NCBI RefSeq assembly: GCF_000371785.1
Contig: NZ_AQUI01000002.1
Coordinates: forward strand, 1,167,122-1,231,121
DNA: 64,000 nt
Source of the DNA: Actinopolyspora halophila DSM 43834
GTDB taxonomy: Bacteria; Actinomycetota; Actinomycetes; Mycobacteriales; Pseudonocardiaceae
Reading direction: 5' to 3'
Shown piece after piece: positions 13,160 through 60,030 of this stretch. The notes beneath the pieces were generated by a model. It did no database searches and had not been told where the DNA came from. It saw only the letters and a list, made by a program, of their open reading frames with translations. The stretch's first letter is position 1, and every line of letters starts with the position of its first letter. The translations under genes were made by a program, and so were the position numbers.

Positions 13160-13345
13160 GGTTGCGTGGCGGAACCTCAGTCGGGGTCTCGCTCCGGGAT
13201 CCTCGACATCGGGTAGCCACCTACACAACGTCGAGGCCGTCCTCGCGAGACCCTCGACTGAGAACCCCCGGCGGTGCCTCCTGCGCAGGCTCAAAGCACC
13301 TGCGTTGGAGTGGAGACTTCTTCGGGGACTCGGTTTGCGTAGGTG
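13160..13345 (+). repeat. Palindromic convergent-gap repeat, copy A with tail
   Basis: The core (about 13164-13278) has an outer stem of CTCAGTCGGGGTCTCGC with GCGAGACCCTCGACTGAG, an inner stem CCTCGAC with GTCGAGG, and a loop containing GGGTAGCCACCTACAC. A tail starting GGCGGTGCC and containing GCAGGCTC, GCGTTGGAGTGGA and GGGGACTCGG follows to 13345. It sits between the candidate sRNA and the 3' end of ald. Confidence 0.85.
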
Positions 13346-13394
13346 GAATCGTGGCGGAATCGGGTGCTCGTCGAATCCCCGCCGACTCTCCTAG

Positions 13395-14510
13395 TCAGCC
13401 GAGCACGCTGTCCACCTCGTCGTAGGCCAGCCCGTGCGCCGCGGCGACCGGCTCGTTCACCAGCTTTCCGTCGTGCGTGTTCAGACCGGCGGCGAGAGCC
13501 TCGTCCTGCCCGCACGCCGCCCGCCAGCCCTGCTCGGCGATCCGCAACGCGTAGGGCAGGGTCACGTTGGTCAGCGCGTGCGTCGAGGTGTTCGGAACGG
13601 CCCCCGGCATGTTGGCCACGCAGTAGAAGACCGAGTCGTGCACCCGGTAGGTCGGTGCGTCGTGCGTGGTGGGATGCGAGTCGGCGAAGCAACCCCCCTG
13701 GTCGATCGCGATGTCCACCAGCACGCTGCCCGACTTCATCCGGCCCACCAGCTCGTTGGAGATGAGCTTGGGGGCCTTGGCTCCGGGAATCAGCACCGCG
13801 CCGATGACCAGGTCCGCGGTGCGCACCGCCTGCTCCACGCTGTAGCGGTTCGAGGTGACCGTGCGGATGCGGCCGCCGAAGTCCCTGTCGATCTCGCGGA
13901 GCTTGTCCACGTTCGTGTCCAGCAGCTCGACGTCGGCGCCCATGCCGAGCGCCACCCGCGCCGAGTTGAGTCCCGCGACCCCGCCGCCGATGACGACCAC
14001 GCGCGCGGGGTGGACACCGGGGACTCCGCCGGGCAACATGCCGCGACCCCCGCTCGGACGCATCAAAGAGTAGGTCCCGACCTGGGGAGCCAGCCTGCCC
14101 GCGACTTCGCTCATGGGGGCCAGCAGCGGCAGTGCCCCGTCGGTGGTCTGCACCGTTTCGTAGGCGATGCCGGTCACGCCCGAGTCGAGCAGCGCGTTGG
14201 TGAGCCCGGCGGATGCGGCCAGGTGCAGGTAGGTGAACAGCACCTGGTCCCGTCGCAGACGGGGATACTCCTCGGCGATCGGTTCCTTGACCTTGAGCAC
14301 CAGGTCGCCCTCGGCCCAGACCTCGTCCGCGTCGGAGAGCACCTTCGCGCCCGCTGCGAGGAACTCCTCGTCGGAGATGGACGAGCCCGCGCCCGCCTGC
14401 GTCTCCACGAACACCTCGTGCCCCCGACTGACGAACTCGTGCACTCCCGCCGGGGTGAGCGCGACGCGATACTCGTTGTTCTTGATTTCCCGGGGTACGG
14501 CGATCTGCAC
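13395..14510 (-). CDS. ald: Alanine dehydrogenase
   Basis: The 371-residue enzyme interconverts L-alanine and pyruvate plus ammonia with NAD. It starts MQIAVPREIKNNEYRVALTP, the family signature, with the substrate-binding Lys in LVLKVKEPIAEEY, then RGMLPGGVPGVHPARVVVIGGGVAGLNSA-type NAD site (GGGVAGLN) and the CVANMPGAVPNTST block near the C terminus. Length equals the family norm. GTG 14510 follows an AGGAAGGAAG site. The upstream gene on the same strand is a PucR regulator; in Bacillus subtilis the PucR-family protein AdeR activates ald, so the neighbour is the probable regulator. Confidence 0.96.
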   Translation of the reverse strand: MQIAVPREIKNNEYRVALTPAGVHEFVSRGHEVFVETQAGAGSSISDEEFLAAGAKVLSDADEVWAEGDLVLKVKEPIAEEYPRLRRDQVLFTYLHLAASAGLTNALLDSGVTGIAYETVQTTDGALPLLAPMSEVAGRLAPQVGTYSLMRPSGGRGMLPGGVPGVHPARVVVIGGGVAGLNSARVALGMGADVELLDTNVDKLREIDRDFGGRIRTVTSNRYSVEQAVRTADLVIGAVLIPGAKAPKLISNELVGRMKSGSVLVDIAIDQGGCFADSHPTTHDAPTYRVHDSVFYCVANMPGAVPNTSTHALTNVTLPYALRIAEQGWRAACGQDEALAAGLNTHDGKLVNEPVAAAHGLAYDEVDSVLG

Positions 14511-14899
14511 TGTGCTTCCTTCCTGCGTACCTTTTCGAACCTGCTTGAGTGATCACCGAACCGGCGGTCGTGCCGGAGGGCTCGCCGGCCTGCCTTCCGA
14601 GCGCGTGGCCCGGCGGACAGCGGAGTCGCGCGGCAGGATCGGAGTTTGTGCGCACCACGATGCGTTGTCAGCGACCCGGCCGCATCATTCTCACACGATG
14701 AGATTGTTCGGGGCTGCTCGTGCCATCGGCACAAACCTGCGAGTAACCCAACGGGAGGGGGCTTCGTGCGGTCCGAGTGAGCCGAAACATCCCGAGCGGT
14801 CGGCACCGCCGGTCGAGCCCGAACTTCGGCGCGGCGGCGCCGAAGATTCACCCCGGGCAGCTCGCACCGCCAAGCAGACCGAACGAGGAATTCCAACGA
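14511..14899. other. ald upstream region
   Basis: This 389-bp gap between pucR and ald holds no credible gene. Its one notable element is the imperfect 21-bp palindrome at 14686-14706. A promoter for ald should lie between that element and 14510, but I cannot choose hexamers with confidence. Confidence 0.5.
14686..14706. promoter_or_regulatory. Imperfect palindrome upstream of ald
   Basis: CATTCTCACACGATGAGATTG contains the arms TCTCA and TGAGA around CACGA, extended outward by CA/TG. It lies 176 bp upstream of ald and just after pucR. It is a candidate PucR/AdeR-type operator. Confidence 0.4.
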
Positions 14900-16480
14900 T
14901 CACCCGTGCGGGTTCCAGCGCTCGCTCAACAGCTGCACCAGCAGTGCCGACCGGATCTCCACGTCCTCCAGATCCACCTCGACGAGCAGGGAGATCCGCT
15001 TCATCCGGTAGCGGAAGGTGTTCGGATGGACCCGCAGTTCCGCGCCCGCGGCACGCGGATCACCGGGATGACGCAGCCAGGCGTACAGCGTGTCCAGGTA
15101 ATCGGTCCCCCGGTTGCGGTCGTGCTCGCGCAGCACGTGCAGCGGTCCGAGGGAGTTGACCCCCGCGTCGCCTGCGGCCCCGGCCATCCTGGTGAGCACG
15201 AGCAGGTGCCAGAGGTCCTCGTGAACCGCGACCTCCCTGTCCACCGTGCCGCCCCGAAGCAGGGTCAGCACCTCGTCGGCCCTGCGGCGGGAGGTCGGCA
15301 GTTCGGCCACCGGGACCGAGGCGCCCGTCGCCACCAGCGGACGCGGCGTGTCGGCGTCCAACTCGCGGATGTGCGTCAGCAGCGACTCCTTCAGCGCGGC
15401 CCAGCCCCCGGTCCCCGACCGGTCCGGAACGACCGCGTACAGCACCCCGCCCGACTCGGTCACCAACGGTCTGTGCCCGATCCCCCTGGTGATCCACTCC
15501 CACATCGCGAGCCGGTGTCCCTCGTCCGTGCCGTCACCCGCGCGCACGTCGATGGCCACCACCCGGTGCGGCTCGGCCCGCACCGCCAGCTCGTTCGCCG
15601 CGGCACGCCACCCCTCCGCGCCCTCCAGCACGAGACGCACCAGTCGCGCGGAGCGCTGCCGCTCGGAATCGGTGAGCATCCTCCTGCGTAGCAGCTGCAA
15701 CGCGACCAGCGCAGCGGTGTCGGCGAAAGCGGAGGCCCGCCGTTCGGAAACCTCCCCGGTGACCACGGCCCACATGGACCCGAGCAGCTCACCGCCCATG
15801 CGGATGGGAACGACCAGCCTGGGCAGCGTCCCGTCGGGCTGTTCCGGGACGTAGATCGCGGAGCTGCCCCTGGTCAGCTGCCGGAACGTTCCCCTGGCCC
15901 TGAACTTGGCCAGCACGTCCTCGGGCTGCCTGCGCCCCATGATCGTGGAAACCCGGGCGGGGTCGGTCAGCTCCTGCCGCGCCGAGTAGGCGAGCACCTG
16001 CGAGTGCGCGTCCTCGATGGTCACGGGGGCGTCGACCACCTCGGCCACGGCGTCGGCCAGGCGGAACAGGTCCCCCAGGCCGGCCGAACCGCCCCTGTCC
16101 GACGACTCCGCCGCGCCTTCACCGTCGGCGAGAGCGGCCCGCAACAGCCAGACCAGCTGTGCCCAGGCGGTGCCGTCCCGGACCTCGATCAGGGCCAGGT
16201 CGTGCCGCCGCGCCTCGGCGGCCACCGCGCTCGCGGTGGCGAGCGGGGGCTTGAGCAGCACGGCGGCCGCGGCGCGCTCCCCGCACTCCCGCAGCAGCTC
16301 AACGGCCTGCCGCTCGTGCGTGAGTCCCACCCCGAGCACCACGTCGGAGGTGGCCGCCCCGCAGCTCTCGTTCGGCTCGGCTATCACCACGTCCCCGACC
16401 CCGCCGGCGTCCTCCGGAGTCGACACCGGACGCAGCAGCGCGGGGCCCGCTCGTTCGACCAGCCCCTGGACGTCGACCAT
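14900..16480 (-). CDS. PucR/CdaR-family transcriptional regulator
   Basis: The 526-residue protein starts at ATG 16480, six bases after GAGGAG. It has an N-terminal PucR-type ligand domain (residues about 1-120), a middle GGDEF-like/GAF-type region with DAVAEVVDAPVTIEDAHSQVLAYSA, and a C-terminal helix-turn-helix of the HTH_30 type: GAELRVHPNTFRYRMKRISLLVEVDLED. This is the architecture of PucR and AdeR activators. The adjacent ald gene on the same strand is the likely target, with L-alanine or a related metabolite as ligand, by analogy with AdeR. The ligand is not visible in the sequence. Confidence 0.88.
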   Translation of the reverse strand: MVDVQGLVERAGPALLRPVSTPEDAGGVGDVVIAEPNESCGAATSDVVLGVGLTHERQAVELLRECGERAAAAVLLKPPLATASAVAAEARRHDLALIEVRDGTAWAQLVWLLRAALADGEGAAESSDRGGSAGLGDLFRLADAVAEVVDAPVTIEDAHSQVLAYSARQELTDPARVSTIMGRRQPEDVLAKFRARGTFRQLTRGSSAIYVPEQPDGTLPRLVVPIRMGGELLGSMWAVVTGEVSERRASAFADTAALVALQLLRRRMLTDSERQRSARLVRLVLEGAEGWRAAANELAVRAEPHRVVAIDVRAGDGTDEGHRLAMWEWITRGIGHRPLVTESGGVLYAVVPDRSGTGGWAALKESLLTHIRELDADTPRPLVATGASVPVAELPTSRRRADEVLTLLRGGTVDREVAVHEDLWHLLVLTRMAGAAGDAGVNSLGPLHVLREHDRNRGTDYLDTLYAWLRHPGDPRAAGAELRVHPNTFRYRMKRISLLVEVDLEDVEIRSALLVQLLSERWNPHG

Positions 16481-16673
16481 CACCGGCTCCTCGTAGTCGT
16501 GCCCGCGGCGGGGTCCGCATCGCGGATTCGGCGGAGAGGTCCCACCGGAGAGTGGATCGCCTCACACCGCTCGGTGTGGCGTGTCCCGCTGTGCGGGGTT
16601 GGGGTTGGACACCGTCATCCGCCGGGTTATCGTTGCCGAACACAGCGACAATCGCATACCGGCCTACGACATC

Positions 16674-16875
16674 GGGCGGGAGAGTCCGGCAGGGCAGCGA
16701 TCTCCGCGATCGCTTCGACCGGGCGCCGAAGGAGCAAAACTCCCCGCAAACTCTCAGGCAGCCGTACCGTCCGACCGAGGCAACTCTGGAAAGCGCCGCC
16801 CAGCTGGTCGGCGCACCCACGGTGCAAACCGCGACGCCGCGGTGAAGCTCTCAGGTTCCGCAACAGAGGGGGAGG
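16674..16875 (+). ncRNA. Tandem glycine riboswitch
   Basis: Two glycine aptamers follow each other. The first starts GGGCGGGAGAGTC and ends GGAGCAAAACTCCCC ... AAACTCTCAGGC (about 16674-16762). The second contains GGCAACTCTGGAAAGC, then GTGAAGCTCTCAGGTTCC and ends CAACAGAGGGGGA (about 16778-16875). These are the conserved core elements of gcvT-type riboswitches, linked by a short spacer that allows cooperative binding. It stands upstream of gcvH and sdaA and should switch them on when glycine is plentiful. A possible promoter is TTGCCG with CATACC near 16633-16661. Confidence 0.93.
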
Positions 16876-17008
16876 CCGCCAGGTACGCGGACACGGCATT
16901 CCCGGTGATCCTCGGAGAGGATGGGCGCCGGGCGCGACCGTGATCGCGACACGGCAGTCCTCCGGGCTGCCGGAGACCGTGTCCAAACGACAGTGATGGA
17001 GCCTCCCC

Positions 17009-17380
17009 ATGAGCCTGCCCACGGACCTCAAGTACACAGAGGAACACGAGTGGCTCGCCGAACGCGACGACATCGTGCGCGTCGGCGTCACACCGTATGC
17101 CGCCAACGCCCTCGGCGACATCGTCTATGTGGACCTCCCCGAGGTCGGCAAGCAGATCACGTCCGGTGAAGCCTGCGGTGAGCTGGAATCGACCAAGTCC
17201 GTCAGTGATCTCTACGCTCCGGCCACCGGCGAGGTCACGGCGGTCAACGAAGCCGTGATCGACGACCCGTCCCAGGTCAACGCCGATCCGTTCGGCGAGG
17301 GCTGGCTGCTGGAGATGCGCGTCAGCGAGTACGGCAAGCTGCTGGACTCGACGCAGTACGCCGAACTCACCGGTGAGTGA
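17009..17380 (+). CDS. gcvH: Glycine cleavage system H protein
   Basis: This 123-residue lipoyl carrier shuttles the aminomethyl group between the P and T proteins of the glycine cleavage complex. The lipoylated lysine is K63 in ELESTKSVSDLYAP, with the preceding GDIVYVDLPEVG hairpin. Length and ends are normal. The gene stands under a tandem glycine riboswitch and 94 bp before sdaA. No gcvT or gcvP is in the window, so H is separated from its partners here. Confidence 0.97.
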   Translation: MSLPTDLKYTEEHEWLAERDDIVRVGVTPYAANALGDIVYVDLPEVGKQITSGEACGELESTKSVSDLYAPATGEVTAVNEAVIDDPSQVNADPFGEGWLLEMRVSEYGKLLDSTQYAELTGE

Positions 17381-17474
17381 CGACCCGGTTCACGGCCTTC
17401 CCGGCGGGTCCCGGAGTTCCGAAGGGGCCCGCCACACCTGAACACCGACTCAACACGTGAAGAAGAGACGATCA

Positions 17475-18830: not shown

Positions 18831-18871
18831 CCCGGTAACGGCCGCCGTGCTGGTGCCGGACGTGCGGTGTC

Positions 18872-18904
18872 GGGCTCCCGCTCCGCGGAAAGGGGCGGGA
18901 GCCC
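18872..18904. terminator. Hairpin between sdaA and the MFS gene, first
   Basis: GGGCTCCCGC pairs with GCGGGAGCCC in the 108-bp convergent gap. It probably ends sdaA transcription. Confidence 0.75.
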
Positions 18905-18908
18905 TCGC

Positions 18909-18930
18909 CCCCGGCACCGAGGTGCCGGGG
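18909..18930. terminator. Hairpin between sdaA and the MFS gene, second
   Basis: CCCCGGCACC (18909-18918) pairs perfectly with GGTGCCGGGG (18921-18930) around GA. It is next to the MFS stop and probably ends transcription from the minus strand. Confidence 0.7.
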
Positions 18931-18938
18931 TGACGGGG

Positions 18939-20120: not shown

Positions 20121-20392
20121 CTCACTCCCTCTGGTCGTGACCCCGGAAACGTCGTTTCCGGGTGGGACGAAAGCCCGAGTGAATTCCTGAAGGGCGAATT
20201 GTTCGCCGACAGGAGATTCTAGCTCCGGGATTCGTTCACGATTTAAGCGGGGGAAGTTCCAGCGGAATCGTCCGAACGGACGTGTGATCGTTCTTCCGTT
20301 CGGAGGTTCGGGACACGAAGAATCGGATCGTTCTCGTCGGCGCCGCCGAAACACACCGCCCCCGGGTGAGCCGGGCCGTGCCACGGTTTCCT

Positions 20393-21786: not shown

Positions 21787-21881
21787 GTCCCGCAGGGTAC
21801 TACTTGACCAATATGACACCAGCAATGTAACACTAGCTCCGTCAAAATAAGGGCGGTCACTGGCGAGCGGAGGAAGGTGTC

Positions 21882-23081: not shown

Positions 23082-23086
23082 GACAG

Positions 23087-36913: not shown

Positions 36914-36940
36914 CGGATGGTCGGCGGGTCCTCTTGCTTG

Positions 36941-37268
36941 GCGGGTTGCGTGGCGGAACCTCTCGCGGGCTCTCGCTCCGGCCAGGCCCGACATCGGGTA
37001 GCCACCTACACAACGTCGGGCCTTGCCTGCGAGAGCACCCCGAGAGAATCCGCGGCGGTGCCGACTGCTCAGGCTCAGAGCCCTGGGGTGGAGCGGAGCT
37101 CTTGGTCGGGAGTTCCTGCCTGGGAGCGCGGCGGTGCTGGTTGCGCAGGCTCGTAAGCGCTTGCGTTGGAGTGGACCGTTTGACCGGGAGTTCCTGCCTG
37201 GGAGTCGGCGGTGCCGGCTGCGTAGGCTGAAGCGCTCGCGTCGGATGGAGCCCTTCGGTGGGAAGTTT
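36941..37268 (+). repeat. Palindromic convergent-gap repeat, copy B with three tail units
   Basis: The core (about 36947-37055) has an outer stem CTCTCGCGGGCTCTCGC with GCGAGAGCACCCCGAGAG and an inner stem AGGCCCGAC with GTCGGGCCT, and the constant loop GGGTAGCCACCTACAC. Three tail units starting CGGCGGTG follow at 37053, 37129 and 37206, so the period is 76-77 bp. Each has GGAGTTCCTGCCTGGGAG or a decayed form. It fills most of the 457-bp gap between fadB and the convergent secreted-protein gene. Confidence 0.88.
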
Positions 37269-41717: not shown

Positions 41718-41848
41718 GATCTCTTGGTCGGGAGTTCCTGTCCGAGGGTTTCGCGTCGGCTCGGTTTGCTCGCGGCGGTGCCGGTGGCGCAGGCTCAGAG
41801 CACCTGCGTTGGAGTGGAGACTTTTTCGGGGACTCGGTCTGCGTGGCT
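41718..41848 (+). repeat. Convergent-gap repeat, copy C (tail only)
   Basis: The palindromic core is missing. TCTTGGTCGGGAGTTCCTG, GCGGCGGTGCCGG, GCAGGCTCAGAGCACCTGCG and GTTGGAGTGGAGAC match the tails of copies A and B; the last 60 bases are almost identical to copy A's tail. It lies in the convergent gap between the DUF6319-like gene and pxpC. Confidence 0.75.
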
Positions 41849-41914
41849 GACCGGGTAGCCGGCACGTGAGTCGGCGCCTCGGGAGTGCTGGGCCGCTGGC
41901 GAGTAGCGACCGAG

Positions 41915-43383: not shown

Positions 43384-43387
43384 GGGA

Positions 43388-47684: not shown

Positions 47685-48095
47685 GTGAAGGGCAGGCTGG
47701 TTTCGCCGAGCTGGGTGCTGCTGCACCTGGTTTTCCTGGCCGCGGTCGTGGCCGCGGGCTGGTTGGGCTGGTGGCAGTGGGAACGCGCCCACGATGCGGG
47801 CGGCAGTTTCCAGAACCTCGGGTACGCGTTGCAGTGGCCGCTGTTCGGCGGTTTCGCCCTGTTCCTGTGGTACCAGGTGGTTCGAACGCTCAACGGCACC
47901 GAGTCGCACGAGGAGGCCGAGTCGGTCGCGGAATCGGCAACCTCCGCGGGAACCGACTCCTCCGCGCCGGAGGAGGCTCGCCCACGGCGTTCTCCGATCC
48001 CTTCCCCGGCACCTCCGGTGACCGAGGACGAGGACCCCCAGCTCGCCGAGTACAACCGCTACCTGGCAGAGCTCAACGCCTCTCGTAGTGAGTGA
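47685..48095 (+). CDS. Conserved actinobacterial two-helix membrane protein
   Basis: GTG 47685 starts a 136-residue product with MKGRLVSPSWVLLHLVFLAAVVAAGWLGWWQWERAHD and a second helix NLGYALQWPLFGGFALFLWYQVVRTL. This pattern is a conserved small membrane protein of mycobacteria and relatives with a SURF1-like start. A long acidic and proline-rich tail follows, ending DPQLAEYNRYLAELN. The function is not known. It begins 79 bp after the MFS gene; a palindromic repeat lies after it. Confidence 0.8.
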   Translation: MKGRLVSPSWVLLHLVFLAAVVAAGWLGWWQWERAHDAGGSFQNLGYALQWPLFGGFALFLWYQVVRTLNGTESHEEAESVAESATSAGTDSSAPEEARPRRSPIPSPAPPVTEDEDPQLAEYNRYLAELNASRSE

Positions 48096-48120
48096 AGTTT
48101 TCCGTCCACCCCTTGGCGTA

Positions 48121-48303
48121 GGTGGTTCCGTGGCGGAACCTCAGTCGGCGCCCGGCTGCGGGTGCCCCGACATCGGGTAGCGACCTACACAACGTCGGGG
48201 CCGTCCTCGCGAGAGCACCACGAGAGAACCCGCAGTCGATCGGGCTGCGTAGGCTCGTAAGCGCTCGCGTTGGACAGAAGCCTTCCGCTGGGAGTGCCTG
48301 TCC
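48121..48303 (+). repeat. Palindromic convergent-gap repeat, copy D (mosaic)
   Basis: The inner stem CCCCGAC with GTCGGGG and loop GGGTAGCGACCTACAC are intact. The outer left arm (CTCAGTCGGCGCCCGGC) belongs to the E type while the right arm (GCGAGAGCACCACGAGAG) belongs to the B/F type, so they do not pair well. A short tail with GCGTAGGCTCGTAAGCGC follows. This copy looks like a recombinant or a decaying one. It lies between two convergent genes. Confidence 0.82.
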
Positions 48304-48416
48304 GGGGCTCGAGTGGCTCGGGTTGCTCGGTGGGTTTCGTAGCGGACCAACCGCTTCGAACGACGTGTCCGGGGCGCACTCGTGCGAGGATCCGATCCCG
48401 GAGCGGGGTCGGGGCG

Positions 48417-48800
48417 TCAGCTGTTGAACTCGATCCTGCCGAACTGGTTCCCCTGCACGACGTTGTTGGCGGTTCCGGAGAACTGGTTGTTGACCGCCTG
48501 GCTTCCGGAGGTCGTAAGCTCCTGGTGGATCGGAGCGCCCTCCGAGCGCAGCTTCTCGGAGAACTCGCCGTCGTCGGACTCCAGCCGATCCAGCCGGCGC
48601 GCCAGTGCGGCGACCTTCGGGTGGTCGGCGGGACGGTCCTCGGCCGACTCCAACGCCGCGGCGGTTTCCGGGTCCTCTTCGGACTTTCCGCGCAACAGTT
48701 CACGTACCTTGGTCAACGCGGCGGAACCGGCGCTGCCGAGTGCCGCGGCCGCCTGTCCGGCGAGCGCGGCTGCGACGGATTCGAGGAACGGGTCGGTCAT
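48417..48800 (-). CDS. Small protein with helical start and amyloid-like C-terminal motif
   Basis: ATG 48800 is a few bases after GGAGG. The 127-residue product opens with MTDPFLESVAAALAGQAAAALGSAGSAALTKVRELL, an alanine/glycine-rich amphipathic region. A charged helical middle follows (SEEDPETAAALESAEDRPADHPKVAALARRLDRLES). The C terminus is NNQFSGTANNVVQGNQFGRIEF, given here in parts: NNQFSG, then NNVVQG, then GRIEF. It has the N-x-F-S-G and V-V-Q-G spacing of bacterial RHIM/PP-type amyloid signalling motifs. Similar small actinobacterial proteins pair an N-terminal effector domain with such motifs. Function is inferred from the motif alone. Confidence 0.55.
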   Translation of the reverse strand: MTDPFLESVAAALAGQAAAALGSAGSAALTKVRELLRGKSEEDPETAAALESAEDRPADHPKVAALARRLDRLESDDGEFSEKLRSEGAPIHQELTTSGSQAVNNQFSGTANNVVQGNQFGRIEFNS

Positions 48801-51360: not shown

Positions 51361-51541
51361 CTCCCAACGCAGGGGACCGTGCAGCACAAGCGCTTACGAG
51401 CCTGAGCAGTCGGCACCGCCGCGGGTTCTCTCGTGGTGCTCTCGCAGGCAAGGCCCGACGTTGTGTAGGTGTGGCTACCCGATGTCGGGCCTGGCCGGAG
51501 CGAGAGCCCGCGAGAGGTTCCGCCACGTAACCACCTACGAC
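51361..51541 (-). repeat. Palindromic convergent-gap repeat, copy F (reverse)
   Basis: In reverse orientation the core has outer stem CTCTCGCGGGCTCTCGC with GCGAGAGCACCACGAGAG and inner stem AGGCCCGAC with GTCGGGCCT. The loop reads GTAGCCACACCTACAC, with two extra bases compared with other copies. A tail with GCTCGTAAGCGC follows. It lies between the PBP gene and the convergent CPBP gene. Confidence 0.85.
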
Positions 51542-51563
51542 AAAGGCGAACAGAACACTTCGA

Positions 51564-52538
51564 TCAGCGGTGGTGGAAGCGGGGGACACCGCGACTGAGC
51601 CCCGGCTCGTCCGCCTCGCGTGCGGGGAACCGGACCGGAAGTTTCTGCAGCGCGATCAGCAGCAGGATCAGCAGGCCCAGCACGATCCAGCCGGTCCACC
51701 CGAGCAGCCCCACCGAGACGTTGGAAACCGGTTCGCCCGGTGCGTTGAACACCTGGGGCAGGATCGCCGCGGCGTTGAGGAAGCCGTGCGCGATCGCGGC
51801 GGGCCAGACACTGCCGGAGGCCAGCCGCAGCCAGCCCAGCAGCGTGCCGACCAGCACGCAGAAGACGATCATCAGCAGGAAGGCGGCCACGCTGGGCACG
51901 GCGGGGTAGTTGTAGCCGAGCAGCAGCAGCGGGGCGTGCCACAGTCCCCACAGCACTCCGGTGACCAGGAACGCGCCCGGTTGTCCCAACGGAAGCAGCG
52001 CCCTGTTCAGGTAACCGCGCCATCCCAGTTCCTCACCGGCAGCGGGAACGACGTTGAGCCACCCGAACACGAACACGTTCACCAGCAGGAGCAGCAGACT
52101 CGTGATCGAGGAGTCCGGGGTCTGGTCGGTCAGGGCGAACTGCAACTGCCCCGGCAGGTCCGTGAAGTCCAGCCAGTGCGCGTCGTAGACGGTCAGCGCC
52201 CATCCGACGACCAGCGTCAGCATCATCGCCAGCGGTGCGCCGAACCACCCGAGCAGCCCGTGCTTCCACCAACCGCGTAATCCACGTGGGTGGGTGATGC
52301 CGATTTCGCGCAGTACGCGCCTGCCCGGACTGATCCACCTGCTCGTCACCAGGGCGGCGACACTGGGCATGAACATCATGGCGATCAACAGGGGTGGGTA
52401 CCAGGTCGAATTCAGCCCCTGCCCGGAAAGCCACAGCGGCAGGGTCAGCAACCACGCCGGGATGTAGGCGATCAGAACGAAGCCGACCGCACCGCGAACG
52501 TCCACTCGGTCGTACTCGGAGTTCATCCGCTCAATCAT
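51564..52538 (-). CDS. CPBP family intramembrane metalloprotease
   Basis: I use ATG 52538 after GGGGAG; ATG 52526 is four codons later. The 324-residue protein has eight or so membrane helices and the CPBP/CAAX signature: EELGWRGYL (EExxxR), LWHAPLLL (second motif with His), and AHGFLNAAAI (third His). These residues bind zinc in Rce1-like proteases. Its substrate is unknown; homologues serve in bacteriocin immunity or membrane protein processing. Gene is convergent with the PBP gene. Confidence 0.88.
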   Translation of the reverse strand: MIERMNSEYDRVDVRGAVGFVLIAYIPAWLLTLPLWLSGQGLNSTWYPPLLIAMMFMPSVAALVTSRWISPGRRVLREIGITHPRGLRGWWKHGLLGWFGAPLAMMLTLVVGWALTVYDAHWLDFTDLPGQLQFALTDQTPDSSITSLLLLLVNVFVFGWLNVVPAAGEELGWRGYLNRALLPLGQPGAFLVTGVLWGLWHAPLLLLGYNYPAVPSVAAFLLMIVFCVLVGTLLGWLRLASGSVWPAAIAHGFLNAAAILPQVFNAPGEPVSNVSVGLLGWTGWIVLGLLILLLIALQKLPVRFPAREADEPGLSRGVPRFHHR

Positions 52539-52635
52539 GCCAACTCCCCGACGACGTGGGTAGCACAACCCTCCGCTTCCGTCCCGTGCCCGCTCGTGAA
52601 CGTGGGAGCGGGCACGGGACCGGCGGAGCGCGGAA

Positions 52636-54927
52636 TCAGGTGTTCGGCGAGTCACGCACCCGCCGCGCCGCGGCGCGCATGTTGACCAGCGCCGCTCTCA
52701 CCTCCTCGTAGCCGCGGGTCTTGAGCCCGCAGTCCGGGTTGACCCAGAGGCGTTCGACCGGGACGGCCTCCAGAGCCGCGCGCAGCAGCTTCTCGATCTC
52801 GTTCACCTCGGGAACCCGCGGGGAGTGGATGTCGTAGACCCCCGGGCCCACTCCGTTGGCGAAACCGACGGAGTTGAGATCGTCCAGCACCTCCATCCTG
52901 GAGCGCGCGGCTTCCAGACTGGTCACGTCCGCGTCGAGGTCCACGATCGCGTTGATGACCTCGCCGAACTCCGAGTAGCACAGATGGGTGTGAATCTGGG
53001 TGGCGTCGGAGACCCCCGAGGTGGCCAGCCGGAAGGAGCGCACCGCCCAGTCCAGGTACTGCCCGTGCTGCTCGGAACGCAGCGGCAGCAGTTCGCGCAG
53101 CGCTGGCTCGTCGACCTGCACCACGCCGACACCCGCCGACTCGAGATCGCCCACCTCGTCGCGGATGGCCATGGCCACCTGGTTCGCGGTCTCGCCGAAC
53201 GGCTGGTCGTTCCGGACGAAGGACCAGGCGAGAATGGTGACGGGACCGGTGAGCATTCCCTTCACCGGTTTGTCGGTCATGCTCCGAGCCTTTTCCGCCC
53301 ACCCGACGGTGATCGGTTCGGGGCGCGAGACGTCGCCGAACAGGATCGGCGGCCGCACGCACCGTGAACCGTAGGACTGCACCCAGCCGTGCTCGGTGCT
53401 GACGAAACCCTCCATGTGCTCGGCGAAGTACTGCACCATGTCGTTGCGCTCGGGTTCGCCGTGCACGAGCACGTCGAGCCCGAGATCCTCCTGGAGCTCG
53501 ATCACACGCCGGATCTCGTCGGTCATCGCGGACTCGTAGGCGGCCCGGTCGATCCGCCCGTTGTTGAACCGCGCGCGTGCCTTGCGCACCTCGGAGGTCT
53601 GCGGGAAGGAGCCGATCGTGGTGGTGGGCAGCGGTGGCAGCCCTAGCACCCGCTGCTGATCCGCACGCCGTTTCGCGGGATCGCCACGTCGCGCGTGCTC
53701 GGGACGCAGCTCCGAGGTGCGCGAACGCACCCGTTCGTCGCGCAACCTGGCCGCGGCACGGCGATCCTCGACCGCGGCACGCCCCCTGTCGAGCTGCTCG
53801 CGAACGACCTCGCGCCCCTCGTGCAGCGCGCGGTCGAGCAGCACGACCTCCTCGACCTTCTGCTCGGCGAAGGCCAACCACGACTTGACCTGCGGGTCGA
53901 TGTCCCGTTCGGCCGAGACGTCGTGGGGGACGTGCAGCAGCGAGCAGGAGGTCCCGATCGAGACCTCGCCCGCGATGCCGAGCAGGGTGGCCGCGGTGGA
54001 AAGGGCCCCGTCGAGGTCGCAGCGCCAGATGTTGCGGCCGTCGACGAGCCCGGCGACCAGTGTCTTGTCCCGCAGCCCGGTCAACCCGGAGAGCACGTTC
54101 GTCGTGGTCGAGCCCGCGACGAGGTCCACCCCGACGGCCTCGATCGGAGCCGAGGCGAGCACGCCGAGGGACTCGCCGGGGTCGCCGAAGTAGGTCGGTA
54201 CGAACAGCTTCGGCCTGGCGGACAGTCCTCCCAGCTCCGCGTAGGCGGTGCGCAGTTTCTCCAGTTCGGCCGGACGACGGTCCGCGGCGAAGGCGGGTTC
54301 GTCCAGCTGCACCCATTCGGCGCCCGCGCGGTGCAGCTCCTCCAGCAGTTCGGCGTAGACCGGCAGCAGGTCGTCCAGCCGGTCCGTGGGGGAGAAGGAC
54401 GCGGGTGCCCCCTCGGCGCTCTTGGCCAGCAGCAGGAACGTCAGCGGCCCGATGATCACCGGCCGGGTGGTGATTCCCAGCTCACCGGCTTCCCGGAACC
54501 GCTCGACCGGGGTGCGGTCGGCCAGGCCGAACCGGGTGTCGGGGCCGACCTCGGGGACGAGGTAGTGGTAGTTGGTGTCGAACCACTTCGTCATCTCCAG
54601 CGGAGGCGTGGACTCCACGCCCCGGGCCATCGCGAAGTAGGTGTCCAGCGGGTCGAGACCGAGGTCGCGGTAGCGCTCGGGGATCGCCCCGAGGGTCACG
54701 GCGGTGTCCAGCACCTGGTCGTAGTAGGAGAACGTGTTGCTCGGGACGGATCCGAGTCCGGCCTCGTGCAGCCTCCGCCAGGTTCGTGCGCGCAGCTCCC
54801 CGGCCGTTTCACGCAACCGGGCTCGGTCGGTCTCACCGGACCAGTAGCTCTCCAGCGCCCGTTTGAGCTCACGGCGCGGCCCGATGCGGGGGTAGCCGAG
54901 TACGGTGGATCCGATTTGGCTGGTCAA
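52636..54927 (-). CDS. metE: Cobalamin-independent methionine synthase
   Basis: TTG 54927 follows GAGGAGAG. The 763-residue enzyme transfers the methyl group of methyltetrahydropteroyl-glutamate to homocysteine. It starts [22 protein letters not shown], and the zinc site is visible in [11 protein letters not shown] and the late [10 protein letters not shown], with the [10 protein letters not shown] and [14 protein letters not shown] segments. Length is normal for MetE. It is preceded by a cobalamin riboswitch on the same strand, so it should be made only when B12 is scarce and MetH cannot work. Confidence 0.97.
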
Positions 54928-55069
54928 AGCTCTCTCCTCGCGAGCTCGACGGCATGGTCGGCCGGCGGCCCCGAGGAAAGTGGCACAGGTGTCGTGGTCG
55001 CGTGGGAGCGTGCGACCCGCCGTCCTGCCGGCCTTCCCGCGAGGCCCCGGACTCGCGCACCGGAGTGCG

Positions 55070-55275
55070 CACCGATGGCAGGTCTTCGGACTCGTGGGCA
55101 TTACCGGCCCGGCCGGTTCTCCTACTCGCCGTCGGCTTCCCGGGCGGTTTCCCGCCCAGTGCCGTGCTCCGAACGCGGTCTTCGTCGGCCGCGTGGGGAC
55201 GGCGTTCGTTCCCACTCACCGCTGCGGGGCAGTCCCGGACTCGCACCGGGTTCCCTCTTGCCTCACCGGACCGGA
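55070..55275 (-). ncRNA. Cobalamin riboswitch
   Basis: On the minus strand the RNA starts near GGTGAGGCAAGAGGGAACCCGG and shows TGCGAGTCCGGGACTGCCCC, GCAGCGGTGA, a CACTGGG to GGGAAGCCGACGGCG middle, and the B12 box (GAGTCCGAAGACCTGCC, 55077-55093). These are the conserved elements of the AdoCbl/cobalamin class. It ends 140 bp before metE, and the intervening sequence has GC-rich hairpins that may be the switching element. B12 binding should turn metE off. Confidence 0.93.
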
Positions 55276-55547
55276 CGTTTTTCGTCGCCGCCGGTGAACC
55301 ATCGGCGCACGCATGGTTGCGTGCTCGACGCGGTTTGGCAAGCCCCTCGTGGTTCCGCCCCGCCCCGCGGCCGGGTCCCGCGGGGCGGTTGGCAGCGGTT
55401 TCGACGCTCGGTGTATTTCCGGTCACAGTGCGCCGTGGCGAGACTCCGCCCGGCAGGGGTGACATTCCGCGCTCCGAGCGGAACCCTTTCAGGGAGGACT
55501 CGCGAACGAACTTGCGAACGTGAGTTCCCGCGCGGAAACATGTCCTC

Positions 55548-56897
55548 ATGCCGAGCGAACTGCTGCCCACGACCCGACGTGCCCTGTTGCGGCGACTGGC
55601 CGTCGAACAGTCCCACAACCGTGTCCCCTCGTTGATCGCCGGACTGGTCCGCGACGGCGAGACCCTCTGGGTGGACAGCCGGGGATCGGTACGCACCGAA
55701 CCACCCACCGCGAACACGCAGTACCGCATCGGTTCCATCACCAAGACGTTCGTGGCCGTGCTGGTGCTGCGACTGCGCGACGAGGGGCGGTTGGAGCTGT
55801 CCGACCGCTTCGGCGATCACGTCCCGGGGACCGCTGTGGACGATCGCCCGATCTGGCAGTTGCTGGCGCACAACAGCGGACTGAGCTCCGAACCGGCGGG
55901 GCAGTGGTGGGAACGTGTTCCCGGCGAGACCCCGGAGAGGTTCGTCGCCGCGGTGGACGGCGCGCAGCTGCGCGAGGAGCCCAGGCACGTCCTCCACTAC
56001 TCCAACACGGCTTTCGGACTGCTGGGCGAGCTGATCGCGCGGCTGCGCGGTGAGGACTTCGCCGATGTGCTTCGCGGGGAGATCCTCGATCCCCTCGGCA
56101 TGCGGCGCACGACGATGGCGCCCGCGGAGCCCTACGCCCCCGGGCTGGCCGTGCATCCGTGGGCCGACGTGCTTCAGCCGGAGCCCGCCGAGGACGCGGC
56201 CGCGATGGCTCCTGCCGGGCAGCTTTGGTCCACTGTGGACGACATGGTTCGCTGGCTGCGCTTCCTCGTCGGCGAGACCGGCGAGGTGCTGCACCCCGAC
56301 ACGCTGACGGAGATGTGCCGGCCGGCCAGTGTGGACGACGGTTCCGAGTGGAACCGGGGGTTCGGCCTCGGTCTGCAGCTGGCGCGTCACCGGGGGCGCA
56401 GGTTGGTCGGGCACGGTGGATCGATGCCGGGGTTCCTCGCGAACGTACTGGCCGATCCGGCGGAGGCGACCGGGGTGGTGTTCCTGGCCAACACAACGTC
56501 CGGAGTGGGCGCGCTGGCCACCGATCTGCTGGACATTCTCGCCGAGCACGAGCCGCGCATCCCACCGGAGTGGCATCCGAGCACCGAGGTCTCGGAGGAA
56601 ACGCTGGAACTGACCGGGCTGTGGTACTGGGGGCCGACCCCGCACCTGATGCGGGTGTTGCCGGACGGGCTGCTCGAGTTGTCGGCCTGGAAGGGGCCGG
56701 GGCGGACCTCGAGGTTCCGCTACGCGGGGGAGGAGACCTGGATCGGCCTGGACGGTTACCACCGCGGAGAACCGCTGCGTGTCGTCCGCTCCGCGGACGG
56801 GAGCCCCGCCCACATCGACCTGAACACCTTCGTGTTCACCAGGGCGCCGTACGACCCGAGCGCGCCCGTCCCGGGCGGGACGCTTCCGTGGAAGTGA
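55548..56897 (+). CDS. Beta-lactamase-related serine hydrolase
   Basis: The 449-residue protein has the class C beta-lactamase/DD-peptidase fold: nucleophile S-I-T-K in RIGSITKTFVAV, the Tyr motif YSNTAFGLLGE, and HGGSMPGF as the third element. There is no obvious signal peptide, so it may act in the cytoplasm, as esterase-like members do. The C-terminal 120 residues form a lipocalin-like domain (LTGLWYWGPTPHLMRVLPDGLLEL). Such proteins hydrolyse peptides or esters; activity cannot be predicted further. It is the only gene on this strand between metE and the sugar-acid cluster. Confidence 0.88.
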   Translation: MPSELLPTTRRALLRRLAVEQSHNRVPSLIAGLVRDGETLWVDSRGSVRTEPPTANTQYRIGSITKTFVAVLVLRLRDEGRLELSDRFGDHVPGTAVDDRPIWQLLAHNSGLSSEPAGQWWERVPGETPERFVAAVDGAQLREEPRHVLHYSNTAFGLLGELIARLRGEDFADVLRGEILDPLGMRRTTMAPAEPYAPGLAVHPWADVLQPEPAEDAAAMAPAGQLWSTVDDMVRWLRFLVGETGEVLHPDTLTEMCRPASVDDGSEWNRGFGLGLQLARHRGRRLVGHGGSMPGFLANVLADPAEATGVVFLANTTSGVGALATDLLDILAEHEPRIPPEWHPSTEVSEETLELTGLWYWGPTPHLMRVLPDGLLELSAWKGPGRTSRFRYAGEETWIGLDGYHRGEPLRVVRSADGSPAHIDLNTFVFTRAPYDPSAPVPGGTLPWK

Positions 56898-57034
56898 CCG
56901 GCTGATCCGACCGAAGGGCCGGAACCGCTCCGGTCCGTTCACGGCGGTCCCGACGCGGGGCCGCCGTGAATCTTCCACCGGACAGGTGGGACGGACTCAC
57001 TCGCTCGGGGCCCAGTCGACCGGCCGGGCGAGCT

Positions 57035-57442
57035 TCAACCGACTGTTCGGTCCGGAAGACTCGCGAACAGGTCGACGTGGTTGCCATCGGGGTCGAGCAC
57101 GGTCGCGTAGCGCTGTCCCCACGGGGCGTCCCAGGGGGCGTGGTGCCCCCGGTGATCGGCCGCGATGACCTCCGCGTACTTGCCGTCGACTCCCCCCGGC
57201 GAACCGCAGTCGAAGGCGAGGGCGATGCGGTGCCCGCCGGAGGGAGGCGTCCACGCGGGGTCCATCGACCGCACCGCCTCCGCCCTGTCCCACATCAGGC
57301 GGGTCCCCGCGGGCAGGGTCGTCTCCACGTGCGACTCCGCGTCGGCGGAGGCGGGGATGTCCAGGCCGAGCAGCCGGTAGAACGCGAGCGTTTTCGCCAT
57401 GTCGTCGGCGACCATGCCGACGGCGCTGAATTCGATGGTCAT
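57035..57442 (-). CDS. VOC-family (glyoxalase-like) protein
   Basis: ATG 57442 starts a 135-residue protein. It has MTIEFSAVGMVADDMAKTLAFYRLLGLDIP at the start and YATVLDPDGNHVDLFA at the end, the two halves of a vicinal-oxygen-chelate fold. HRIALAFDC and the late E/D positions could bind metal, but the metal set is incomplete. It may be a glyoxalase, a resistance protein or a dioxygenase relative. The gene is convergent with the hydrolase gene. Confidence 0.85.
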   Translation of the reverse strand: MTIEFSAVGMVADDMAKTLAFYRLLGLDIPASADAESHVETTLPAGTRLMWDRAEAVRSMDPAWTPPSGGHRIALAFDCGSPGGVDGKYAEVIAADHRGHHAPWDAPWGQRYATVLDPDGNHVDLFASLPDRTVG

Positions 57443-57620
57443 GACGGCAAAGTAGCCGGTCGACGGCATCCACGGGTTGAACGAATCGGACGAGCCGTCG
57501 TGATTTCGCTGAGTAGTCGGCCATATCGGCCGTGTTCCCTGCCTCGACGGTCGCATCACCTCCGTTTTCCCTCGTCCGAGGGCGGGTGTGTGGCTCGGGA
57601 AGTCGAGCACCGGTCATGTG

Positions 57621-57676
57621 TTGACCATCACCCGATCGTGTCGTAGGTTGTCCGAACAACGTTCGGCATACCGAAC
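57621..57676 (+). promoter_or_regulatory. Promoter and IclR-type operator of the symporter gene
   Basis: TTGACC (57621-57626) and TAGGTT (57644-57649) are 17 bp apart. Immediately downstream is CCGAACAACGTTCGG (57652-57666), a perfect palindrome, and GTTCGGCATACCGAAC (57661-57676), a second overlapping inverted repeat. The start site falls within this operator, so a bound IclR-type protein would repress. The same pattern is found before the gene at 61040. Confidence 0.75.
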
Positions 57677-57723
57677 ATGCGATTGGAGAGCCAACTCGCG
57701 GACGGCGACAGGATCGGACGACG

Positions 57724-59391
57724 ATGCACACTCTGGCCGATGGGCTACGGCTGTCGATGAACTGGATGGACAGCCTCATTCTTGTCATCTATTTCGCGGT
57801 CGTTCTCGGGATCGCGTTTGCCGCAAAACGAAGCGTGCACACCACGCTGGACTTTTTCCTGTCCGGGCGCTCGTTGCCGGCTTGGGTCACCGGACTCGCG
57901 TTCGTCTCGGCGAATCTGGGGGCGACCGAGATACTCGGGATGGCCGCGAACGGGGCGCAATACGGTGCCTACACGATTCACTGGTACCTGATCGGCGCCA
58001 TCCCCGCCATGGTCTTTCTCGGCCTGGTGATGATGCCGTTCTACTACAACTCCAAAGTGCGCAGTGTTCCCGAATTCCTGCTGCTGCGGTTCAGTCGTTC
58101 CTCGCACCTGCTGAGCTCGATCCTCTTCGCGGTGGCCTCGGTGCTCATAGCGGGTGTGAACCTCTACGCCCTGGCCATCGTTCTGCAGGCCCTGCTCGGT
58201 TGGCCGATTCCGGTCTCGATCGTGGTGGCGGGGCTCTTCGTGCTCGCCTACATCATCATCGGAGGACTCACCTCGGCCATTTACAACGAGGTGCTGCAGT
58301 TCTTCGTCATCATCGCGGCACTGGTGCCGCTCACCGTGCTCGGACTGGTCCGCGTCGGTGGTGTCGGAGGCCTGCTGGACAAGGTGACCGCCTCGGAAGG
58401 GGCGCAGTTCCTGAGCGCCTGGGGCGGAACCGGTTTCGGCCAGGACAATCCCCTGGGGGCGAACTGGCTGACCATCACCCTGGGACTCGGTTTCGCCATC
58501 TCGTTCGGCTACTGGACGACGAATTTCGCCGAGGTGCAGCGGTCCCTCTCGGCGAAGAACCTCTCCGCCGCGCGGCGCACCCCGTTGATCGCGGCGTTCC
58601 CCAAGATGTTCATCCCGCTGATCGTGGTGCTTCCCGGGGTGATCGCGCTGCTCGTGCAGCCGAACATCGGCCAGCCCGGAAGCGAGTACGACTACAATTC
58701 GGCGATACCACTGCTCATGGCCGAGTTGTTGCCGAACGGTGTTCTCGGATTGGCCGTCACCGGGCTGATGGCCTCCTTCATGGCGGGTATGGCGGCCAAC
58801 GTGTCCAGTTTCAACACGGTTTTCACCACCGATATCTGGCAGGCCTACATCAAGCCGGCGATGTCGGACGCGCACTATCTGATGACAGGCCGCGTCGTCA
58901 CCGCCGTGGGAGTGCTGATCGGGATCGGGACGGCGTTCATCGCGTCGTCGTTCAGCAACATCATGAACTACATGCAGACGTTGTTCTCCTTCTTCAACGT
59001 CCCGCTGTTCGCCACTTTCATACTCGCCCTGTTCTGGAAGCGGATGACCGCCCAGGCCGGTTTCTGGGGTCTGTTGCTCGGAACGCTGGCCCCGGTCGGT
59101 TTCTACAGCCTCTACCGAGTGGGCATCGTGGAAATGGGCAGCGATCAGGCGGTCAACATGACCTCCTCGATCATCGCCTTCGCGGTCGACGTCGCGGTGA
59201 GCGTGCCCGTCGCCCTGGCCACCAGGCCGAAACCGGCCGCGGAACTGGCCGGACTGGTCTACACGAAGGCCGATGCCAACACGCGGGGAGAACTGCAGAA
59301 GGGCGACGACGCCTGGTACCGCAAACCGGCCCTGCTCGGTTGGGGAGCGATCGTGCTCGCGGTGTTGTGCTACATCCCGTTCTCCCTATGA
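57724..59391 (+). CDS. Sodium:solute symporter (SSS family)
   Basis: The 555-residue protein has about 13-14 hydrophobic segments and SSS motifs: FFLSGRSLPAWVTGLAFVSANLGATEILGMAANGAQYG in helix 1-2 and the sodium-site MASFMAGMAANVSSFNTVFTTDIW. The subgroup is close to sugar/sugar-acid carriers such as SglT-like proteins. An operator shared with the sugar-acid genes and an IclR gene make a sugar acid or oligosaccharide the likely substrate. A 95-residue membrane protein follows and may be its partner. Confidence 0.9.
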   Translation: MHTLADGLRLSMNWMDSLILVIYFAVVLGIAFAAKRSVHTTLDFFLSGRSLPAWVTGLAFVSANLGATEILGMAANGAQYGAYTIHWYLIGAIPAMVFLGLVMMPFYYNSKVRSVPEFLLLRFSRSSHLLSSILFAVASVLIAGVNLYALAIVLQALLGWPIPVSIVVAGLFVLAYIIIGGLTSAIYNEVLQFFVIIAALVPLTVLGLVRVGGVGGLLDKVTASEGAQFLSAWGGTGFGQDNPLGANWLTITLGLGFAISFGYWTTNFAEVQRSLSAKNLSAARRTPLIAAFPKMFIPLIVVLPGVIALLVQPNIGQPGSEYDYNSAIPLLMAELLPNGVLGLAVTGLMASFMAGMAANVSSFNTVFTTDIWQAYIKPAMSDAHYLMTGRVVTAVGVLIGIGTAFIASSFSNIMNYMQTLFSFFNVPLFATFILALFWKRMTAQAGFWGLLLGTLAPVGFYSLYRVGIVEMGSDQAVNMTSSIIAFAVDVAVSVPVALATRPKPAAELAGLVYTKADANTRGELQKGDDAWYRKPALLGWGAIVLAVLCYIPFSL

Positions 59392-59468
59392 GGTTTCGTC
59401 GCTAGTTCGGCGCGGCCGGGTGCTGCTCACCCGGCCGCGTGTCGGAGTTCCAAGTTTGGAGGTAACCG

Positions 59469-59756
59469 TTGTCCGAGCAAACGGATTCCGGAGAGGACCG
59501 GCGCGAAACCGGAAACTCGTCCGCGTCGACGAAGCTGTTCGACATCCGCACGATCATCGGCGGACTCTTCGTCGTGTACGGCGTGCTGGTGGGGCTCGCC
59601 GGAATGTTTCCCACGGAGGAGGGGCTGGCCAAGTCCCAGGGGATCAACATCAACCTGTGGACGGGCCTGTCGATGCTGGTACTCGGTGGGCTCTTCCTGC
59701 TCTGGGTCAGGCTTCGCCCGCTCGAAACGCCGGAGATGCCCTCGGAGGAGGGCTGA
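59469..59756 (+). CDS. Two-helix membrane protein, probable partner of the symporter
   Basis: TTG 59469 is six bases after GGAGG. The 95-residue product has a polar start, then DIRTIIGGLFVVYGVLVGLAGM and a second helix LWTGLSMLVLGGLFLLWVRL. Small two-helix proteins following SSS carrier genes are known as auxiliary subunits in some families; here it is 77 bp behind the symporter. No motif beyond the helices is seen. Confidence 0.65.
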   Translation: MSEQTDSGEDRRETGNSSASTKLFDIRTIIGGLFVVYGVLVGLAGMFPTEEGLAKSQGININLWTGLSMLVLGGLFLLWVRLRPLETPEMPSEEG

Positions 59757-59792
59757 CCTTCAGAGGTCGGCGGGGCCGGTTGCGTAGCGGTG

Positions 59793-60030
59793 CGGGTGGC
59801 GGAACCTCAGTCGGCGCCCGGCTGCGGGTGCCTCGACATCGGGTAGGCACCTACACAACGTCGAGGCCGTCCTCGCCGGGCACTCGACTGAGAACCCGCG
59901 GTTGGTCGGTCTGCGTAGGCTCAAAGCGCTCGTGTTGGTGTGACGGATTTCCCGGGGACCCGGCCCGCCTGGTGGGGCGCTCGGCGGTGCCGGTGGCTCG
60001 GGCTCGTAAGCGCCTGCGGTGACGTCCGGG
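59793..60030 (+). repeat. Palindromic convergent-gap repeat, copy E with tail
   Basis: The outer stem is CTCAGTCGGCGCCCGGC with GCCGGGCACTCGACTGAG, the inner stem CCTCGAC with GTCGAGG, and the loop is GGGTAGGCACCTACAC. The tail contains GCGTAGGCTCAAAGCGCTCG, then GGCGGTGCCGGTGGC and GGCTCGTAAGCGCCTGCG. It lies between the small membrane protein and the convergent IclR gene. Confidence 0.85.

What the first reader, a model, noticed from the sequence alone, without database searches (positions are those of the whole stretch)
13160..60030. Dispersed palindromic element with covarying stems, found only in convergent gene gaps
Five cores of about 100 bp (13164-13278, 36947-37055, 48130-48232, 59795-59900, and reversed at 51418-51525) share a loop with GGGTAGCCACCTACAC. 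They differ in their stems in a paired way: inner stems CCTCGAC/GTCGAGG (A, E), CCCCGAC/GTCGGGG (D) and AGGCCCGAC/GTCGGGCCT (B, F); outer stems CTCAGTCG/CGACTGAG (A, E) versus CTCTCG/CGAGAG (B, F). Compensatory changes mean that folding is selected or recently copied. Five copies and one tail-only relative all lie between 3' ends of facing genes, or between a candidate sRNA and ald. I know of no named actinobacterial element like this. It may be a REP-like mobile element, a two-way terminator or a structured 3' RNA.
Basis: partly seen in the sequence, partly recalled or inferred. Interest (0 to 1): 0.85.

Follow-up and report, generated by a model that had tools for sequence, protein, structure and literature searches.

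The report
Mobile hairpin element behind stop codons
The five repeats belong to a family of small mobile DNA pieces, found across one family of actinobacteria, that sit just behind genes and carry a long hairpin kept by evolution; in one species their ends match those of a known kind of jumping gene.

Summary
Five copies are in the window and about 148 in the home genome. The same folded core matches in 79 of 297 genomes sampled from the family (15 of 46 genera); in a class-wide sample of 394 genomes the only 2 matches lie in that family. Across 15 genera 24 of 40 stem pairs change on both sides, far above both controls. "Only in convergent gaps" is wrong: 33 tandem, 18 convergent, 4 divergent of 55. 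The better rule is position: most copies lie in sense orientation shortly behind a stop codon. Best explanation: a MITE-like mobile element. In Saccharopolyspora rosea it is a 232-bp unit with terminal inverted repeats (TIRs) and TNA flanks, and two IS copies coding an IS5-family transposase carry nearly the same TIR. In the window's genus two orthologous copies have 15-16 bp TIRs, and a close relative has an empty site in a hairpin behind the stop. No RAYT and no partner IS were found in the home genome. Against a simple RNA reading: 14 of 48 home copies have broken stems, and A.C mismatches outnumber G.U. What the core does is open.

The parts
13143..13284 (+). type-1 core, copy A; between an intrinsic-terminator-like hairpin (about 13097-13122) and the 3' end of ald (stop end 13395)
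36927..37068 (+). type-1 core, copy B; starts 13 nt behind the stop of the 3HCDH/ECH gene (ends 36913)
48107..48248 (+). type-1 core, copy D; chimeric arms, outer and middle stems not paired; starts 11 nt behind the stop of a short, low-score gene call (ends 48095) that has relatives in congeners
51406..51549 (-). type-1 core on the minus strand; starts 14 nt behind the stop of the CAAX-protease-like gene (51564-52655, minus)
59773..59914 (+). type-1 core; starts 16 nt behind the stop of a short, low-score gene call (ends 59756) that has relatives in congeners
37069..37266 (+). tail units (about 77 bp, repeated) of copy B
   Evidence: families D3, D7, D10, D11; 35 of 38 tail hits lie within 400 nt of a core, all 35 on its strand
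13285..13345 (+). tail unit of copy A
   Evidence: family D4
48249..48311 (+). tail unit of copy D
   Evidence: families D10, D11
59915..60021 (+). tail units of the 59773 copy
   Evidence: families D3, D4 and I7
41836..41913 (+). left half of a type-2 core, truncated at the facing gene
   Evidence: (50.7 bits, profile 21-98)

Best explanation
The repeats are members of a family of non-autonomous, MITE-like transposable elements, about 205-285 bp when complete. Anatomy in sense orientation: 5' TIR; a roughly 105-nt hairpin core (basal stem, AAC/AAC internal loop, variable paired stems, small apical hairpin); often a second short GC hairpin (AAGCGGC..GCCGCTT); 3' TIR. A DDE transposase of the IS5 family, supplied in trans by an IS with the same ends, inserts them at TNA- or YTAR-like sites. 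In GC-rich genomes tolerated sites of that kind would largely be stop codons and loops of hairpins just behind them, so the elements end up shortly behind a stop codon, where the duplicated target can restore the stop and the element's own hairpins take the place of the old 3' end. Shown by sequence: TIRs, TNA flanks and the IS5 partner in S. rosea; TIRs of two orthologous copies, an empty site and turnover in the window's genus; position behind stops; cross-genus covariation. Inferred: that an IS5-type enzyme also moved the window's copies; the YTAR-type target; that insertion preference rather than selection alone explains the position; any terminator-like effect.
For: S. rosea (G224; its contig length equals that of NZ_CP102826.1): the TIR word occurs 280 times with up to 2 mismatches, against 0 for the reversed control. 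In 23 TIR-bounded rows from 17 loci (some loci counted with more than one pairing) the flanking trinucleotides are TNA in 20 (left) and 21 (right) and identical in 15; 15 of 23 rows are 231-234 bp long, most often 232. Loci L211 and L236 hold an IS of about 966 bp with TIR GTGCCTGTCTTTGATCTTGG (19 of 20 bases equal to the element's 3' TIR) and a 277-aa transposase: PF13340, PF01609, NF033580 at 197 bits against cut-off 110. Window's genus: a copy with a perfect 16-bp inverted repeat, five further copies with weaker end similarity by eye; at that place G008 carries a copy with matching ends, and G002 (96% identical flank) has a 40-nt palindrome 7 nt behind the same stop, z -8.6. Turnover: cores at window loci A and B absent in G002, two G002 cores absent from the window, E and F without a core in several congeners, locus D filled in the opposite orientation in G003, G009 and G007. 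Position: 32 of 55 home copies have a coding stop within 100 nt upstream in sense, 29 of these at 22-34 nt from the core profile start, against 70 of 600 random intergenic points; among 53 copies from G006 and 14 other genera 42 have an upstream stop, 37 of them within 39 nt. Structure: covariation score 0.333 against 0.085 shuffled and at most 0.076 slid; on a structure-blind alignment 152 double-change cells against at most 68 in 300 shuffles.
Against: TIRs are visible in a minority: 15 of 105 copies above the 95th percentile of shuffles, 7 of 74 above the 99th percentile of mismatched pairs in named Saccharopolyspora, Amycolatopsis and Halopolyspora copies. In S. rosea, shifting the flank comparison by one base leaves 14 and 12 identical rows, because the neighbouring C and G are shared too; by two bases or more 0-2. 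No partner IS was found in the home genome: its IS5-like loci that I fetched have other ends, and the TIR word gave no IS-spaced pair among the listed hits, a capped list of 156. The target duplication is unresolved in the window's genus; the left arm of the G002 palindrome is missing at both filled sites, and G002 need not be ancestral. TIRs differ between lineages, and the IS5 link is shown in one species only. A DDE transposase as known needs only the ends and does not explain the conserved inner hairpin. 23 of 55 home copies and 11 of 53 others show no upstream stop by my caller. In S. rosea orientation bias is weak: 6 loci with an upstream stop within 5 nt of the border, 2 with a facing stop at 0 nt and 2 more at 6 and 9 nt.
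Confidence: 0.72

Rival explanations
1. A structured 3'-UTR RNA (mRNA stabiliser, terminator or source of small RNA) kept by selection on the host; its spread is secondary.
For: Mostly sense orientation behind stop codons; 24 of 40 pairs change on both sides across 15 genera; unpaired AAC/AAC motif kept, by eye; two conserved wobble positions, U-G in 47 of 48 and 34 of 36, G-U in 35 of 48 and 34 of 36; a second hairpin often follows.
Against: Among well-supported pairs G.U departures (14 and 10) are fewer than A.C (23 and 24), the opposite of what selection on the sense RNA predicts; 14 of 48 home copies are broken; orthologous genes differ in having a copy; G006 of the same genus has only 3 copies and five chosen genomes of the family none; no Rfam match to the core.
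Confidence: 0.3
2. REP-type element moved by a RAYT (Y1 tyrosine transposase).
For: Palindromic, over 100 copies, intergenic, mosaic.
Against: Y1_Tnp hits in the home genome: five of seven have a TnpB-like ORF beside them, one is a fragment, one is below the cut-off; TIRs and TNA flanks in S. rosea; complete units of about 205-285 bp.
Confidence: 0.04
3. Covariation is a by-product: hairpin-templated repair and recombination between copies keep the palindromes matched without selection.
For: Chimeric copies; in the home genome the outer, middle and inner paired arms (normalised linkage 0.39, 0.57, 0.52) are not more linked than three of four neighbouring unpaired arms (0.60-0.70; the fourth 0.28); departures not biased to G.U.
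Against: The basal paired arms are linked at 0.82, and distant unpaired arms only at 0.30-0.37; internal loops, by eye, and two wobbles stay unmatched across 15 genera, which automatic matching would tend to erase.
Confidence: 0.3
4. The core is an insertion hot spot (landing pad) for IS5-type elements, and the shared TIR in S. rosea only reflects nested insertions.
For: IS copies sit in the core's CTCAG in S. rosea (L211, L236, with a repeated TGA) and in G021 (L238, L249, L260) (by eye); about six of 23 rows are elements nested in another copy's core.
Against: TIRs bound units without any transposase at 231-234 bp, also behind ordinary gene ends.
Confidence: 0.12

Closest known systems
Bacterial MITEs mobilised in trans by IS elements (for example RUP with IS630-Spn1, Correia/NEMIS elements; recalled, not compared)
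   Same: short, TIR-bounded, target duplication, many copies, hairpin-forming, partner IS with the same ends (S. rosea)
   Different: long conserved inner hairpin with cross-genus covariation; ends differ between lineages while the core stays; position behind stop codons
IS5 family (NF033580 type; TNA or YTAR target duplications, recalled)
   Same: nearly the same ends and TNA flanks in S. rosea
   Different: the 232-bp units hold no transposase; no likeness to the IS beyond the ends was seen by eye
REP/BIME elements with RAYT (recalled)
   Same: intergenic, palindromic, mosaic, high copy number, behind genes
   Different: no RAYT found in the home genome; TIRs; much longer unit
MIRU of mycobacteria (inserted at overlapping stop/start codons, recalled)
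   Same: actinobacterial intergenic repeat tied to stop codons; repeated units of about 77 bp in the tail
   Different: MIRUs as recalled have no such hairpin core or TIRs; no sequence comparison was made
BOX elements of Streptococcus pneumoniae (recalled)
   Same: modular, structured, between genes
   Different: other phylum; no sequence comparison was made

Membership tests
MITE | terminal inverted repeats | tested here: met
   S. rosea; one perfect 16-bp pair and weaker ones in the home genome; only a minority of copies overall
MITE | target site duplication | tested here: met
   S. rosea: identical flanking trinucleotides in 15 of 23 rows; not resolved in the window's genus
MITE | autonomous partner with the same ends | tested here: met
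   S. rosea L211, L236; not found in the home genome
MITE | no coding capacity | not tested
   short length and stem divergence make it likely; no formal test
MITE | insertion polymorphism between relatives | tested here: met
REP/RAYT | RAYT gene in the genome | tested here: not met
   (home genome only)
REP/RAYT | 20-40 nt unit with a conserved GTAG-type foot (recalled) | tested here: not met
   unit about 105 nt with foot GGCGGAAC, by eye
Known RNA family (Rfam 15) | match to a covariance model | tested here: not met
   window, gathering; 10 loci, E up to 1
Intrinsic terminator | stops transcription at the element | not testable with these tools
   hairpin strong in two of three window copies folded, no transcript data
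IS5 element | encodes the transposase | tested here: not met
   units of 231-234 bp are too short for one; the linked 966-bp IS has it

The most novel reading that the evidence does not exclude
A conserved hairpin cassette that changes its mobile ends: one structured core has been carried by several unlike sets of terminal repeats (GTGCCTGTCTTTGAACT in S. rosea, ATTTCAATGAGGTTTTTCC in S. hirsuta, AGAGTGCACGGCTCG in the window's genus), inserting at stop codons and terminator loops, and so acts as a mobile, exchangeable 3' end of genes across a whole bacterial family.
Probability: 0.3. Interest if true: 0.78.

Novelty: new variant of a known kind. Interest (0 to 1): 0.6.

Why it matters
It may be a mobile element that gains safe sites by using stop codons and terminator loops as targets, and that may rewrite the 3' ends of many genes in antibiotic-producing actinobacteria (Saccharopolyspora, Amycolatopsis). 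A covarying core inside a DDE-type MITE is not explained by transposition chemistry and makes a clear question testable: is the fold kept for RNA, for DNA or by repair? Unannotated copies would also confuse terminator and small-RNA annotation.

Tried and rejected
Loop-to-flank pseudoknot (GTAGGTGG with CCACCTAC): seen in some copies, but upstream flanks vary; dropped by inspection, no formal test. RAYT. Integron attC-like site: considered from memory only, no test. Sense-RNA selection by wobble asymmetry: tested, the result points the other way. Partner IS in the home genome by transposase ends (14 matches, of which four loci in this genus were looked at: L245, L255, L264 of the home genome and L246 of G008) and by TIR word: none seen. 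Partner IS for the S. hirsuta type ends in the fetched loci of up to 8 kb: none, 7 short pairs only. Plasmid and phage collections: two queries against plasmids and one against phages, no match. Papers: eight searches listed no paper whose title or abstract start describes this element; only listings were seen, except PMC3610266, of which the outline, abstract and four passages were seen: it reports 190 putative intergenic ncRNAs in S. erythraea and holds the words hairpin and motif nowhere in its main text. Subscription journals and preprints are not covered.

Limits: gene calls come from my own hexamer gene finder, coverage 0.79-0.83, so some upstream 'start' cases are probably miscalls. Copy counts are lower bounds or near them, because only 150, 146, 10 or 8 candidates were scored per genome. 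The 148 rows include at least one pair of overlapping opposite-strand hits. Four home copies of the 52 extracted were left out of A2 before the pair counts: divergent ones near the bottom of the list. Alignment A4 was fitted to the model; the structure-blind check is.

Full report
Observation. The five cores are real. A covariance model built from 48 home-genome copies (R1, alignment A2) finds 148 matches in the home genome, all on the large contig C2 (150 candidates scored). In the 1.264 Mb that I read directly, a profile finds 55 cores of 40 bits or more: 54 lie in three blocks (864 kb) between 0 and 1.23 Mb and one in the 400-kb block at 2.4-2.8 Mb. A second, related core type (loop GAGTAGCCACCTACGC, other stems) adds 20 hits of 80 bits or more. 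Tail units of about 77 bp accompany the cores: 35 of 38 tail hits lie within 400 nt of a core, all 35 on its strand.

Fold. In 48 home-genome copies the named structure forms 85.5% of cells against 79.3% after shuffling, with 15 of 40 pairs changed on both sides against 11.1 shuffled. Across 36 copies from 15 genera the figures are 89.5% against 75.5%, 24 pairs against 15.8, and a covariation score of 0.333 against 0.085 shuffled and at most 0.076 when slid (alignment A4). A structure-blind alignment gives the same picture: 88.7% against at most 78.5%, 24 pairs against at most 20, and 152 double-change cells against at most 68. Within the home genome, however, copies are mosaics: 14 of 48 have a broken outer or middle stem. 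Normalised linkage is 0.39, 0.57, 0.52 and 0.82 for outer, middle, inner and basal paired arms, 0.60-0.70 for three of four neighbouring unpaired arms (the fourth 0.28) and 0.30-0.37 for two distant unpaired ones. The window copy at 48130 is a chimera and does not fold better than shuffles. Departures from Watson-Crick pairs are A.C more often than G.U (23 against 14, and 24 against 10), which speaks against selection on the sense RNA alone; two conserved wobble positions speak for it.

Position. Convergent gaps are not the rule: 33 tandem, 18 convergent, 4 divergent of 55, where the called gaps of 150 bp or more are 302, 92 and 161. The better rule is the 5' border. The window's copies B, D, the minus-strand one and the last start 13, 11, 14 and 16 nt behind a called stop codon. 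In the home genome 32 of 55 copies have a coding stop within 100 nt upstream in sense, 29 of these at 22-34 nt from the start of the core profile, against 70 of 600 random intergenic points; 23 of 55 have none by this test, several of them second copies in arrays or beside a gene start. Of 53 copies from G006 and 14 other genera 42 have an upstream stop, 37 of them within 39 nt; 11 face a called gene start. Given a stop, the next gene is facing in 16 of 32, which fits the expectation of 39% (p=0.28).

Spread. All 10 genomes of the genus that were searched carry it, nine with 124-148 matches and G006 with 3. In the family 79 of 297 genomes and 15 of 46 genera match, the home genus included (10 candidates scored per genome, strict filters). 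Follow-up counts in 17 positive genomes range from 126 (G022), 92 and 90 (G224, G283) down to 1 (G132, G258), and five chosen negatives stay at 0. In 394 genomes of the class the only 2 matches are in the same family (8 candidates scored per genome).

Mobility. At window loci, the core is missing at A and B in G002, two cores of G002 are missing in the window, E and F have no core in several congeners, and at D the congeners G003, G009 and G007 carry an element in the opposite orientation beside the other gene's stop. In S. rosea the element is a unit of 231-234 bp in 15 of 23 rows, with TIR GTGCCTGTCTTTGAACT; the flanking trinucleotides are TNA in 20 and 21 of 23 rows and identical in 15. The TIR word occurs 280 times against 0 in the control. 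Two loci hold an IS of about 966 bp with nearly the same TIR and a 277-aa IS5-family transposase; each sits in the CTCAG of another element's core with a repeated TGA. In G021 three IS copies sit in the same core site, and their ends do not match that genome's elements by eye. In S. hirsuta the ends are different again. In the window's genus one copy (home C2:709109-709390) has a perfect 16-bp inverted repeat. At its orthologous site G008 has a copy with the same ends, G003 and G009 have relic-like hairpins, and G002, G006, G001, G004, G005 and G007 show no core hit; G002 has a 40-nt palindrome behind the stop, and the insertion appears to lie in its loop region, its left arm being absent from both filled sites.

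Reading. These facts fit a MITE-like element moved by IS5-type enzymes, with targets that coincide with stop codons and terminator loops. The IS5 link is shown by sequence in one species and inferred for the window. The conserved core is not needed for such transposition as far as I know, so a second role or a repair effect must keep it; the evidence does not decide which. No RAYT in the home genome, no Rfam family, no plasmid or phage match for the queries tried and no description in the listings of eight paper searches were found.

Noticed in passing
window 55060-55318 (-) and 16667-16779 (+): Cobalamin riboswitch and glycine riboswitch by Rfam.
   Followed up: no
window 860-917 and 3561-3618: A second dispersed repeat pair (76% over 58 nt).
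   Followed up: no
window 5170-5253: Tandem 21-bp repeat inside a long minus-strand ORF.
   Followed up: no
home C2 about 339970-340013 and 82638-82676: Left half of an element followed by an inverted left half; together they form a new hairpin.
   Followed up: partly
G001, G004, G005, G007 at the orthologue of window 48095-48417: Another short palindromic repeat, GTCGATTTCTCGCGAAATCGAC-like, in the same gap.
   Followed up: no
G003, G009, G007, G005, G001, G004 orthologous region at about 27.8-28.6 kb: These congeners carry a core shortly before the orthologue of the 59469-59756 gene, where the window has none.
   Followed up: no
L031-L035 (home C2): IS200/IS605-type elements with TnpA- and TnpB-like ORFs, some with in-frame stops.
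   Followed up: no
home chromosome C2: Cores are dense at 0-1.23 Mb and rare at 2.4-2.8 Mb; none of 148 matches is on contig C1.
   Followed up: partly
window 13097-13122: Strong intrinsic-terminator-like hairpin upstream of copy A, also present in G002 and G008; the upstream transcript is unidentified.
   Followed up: no
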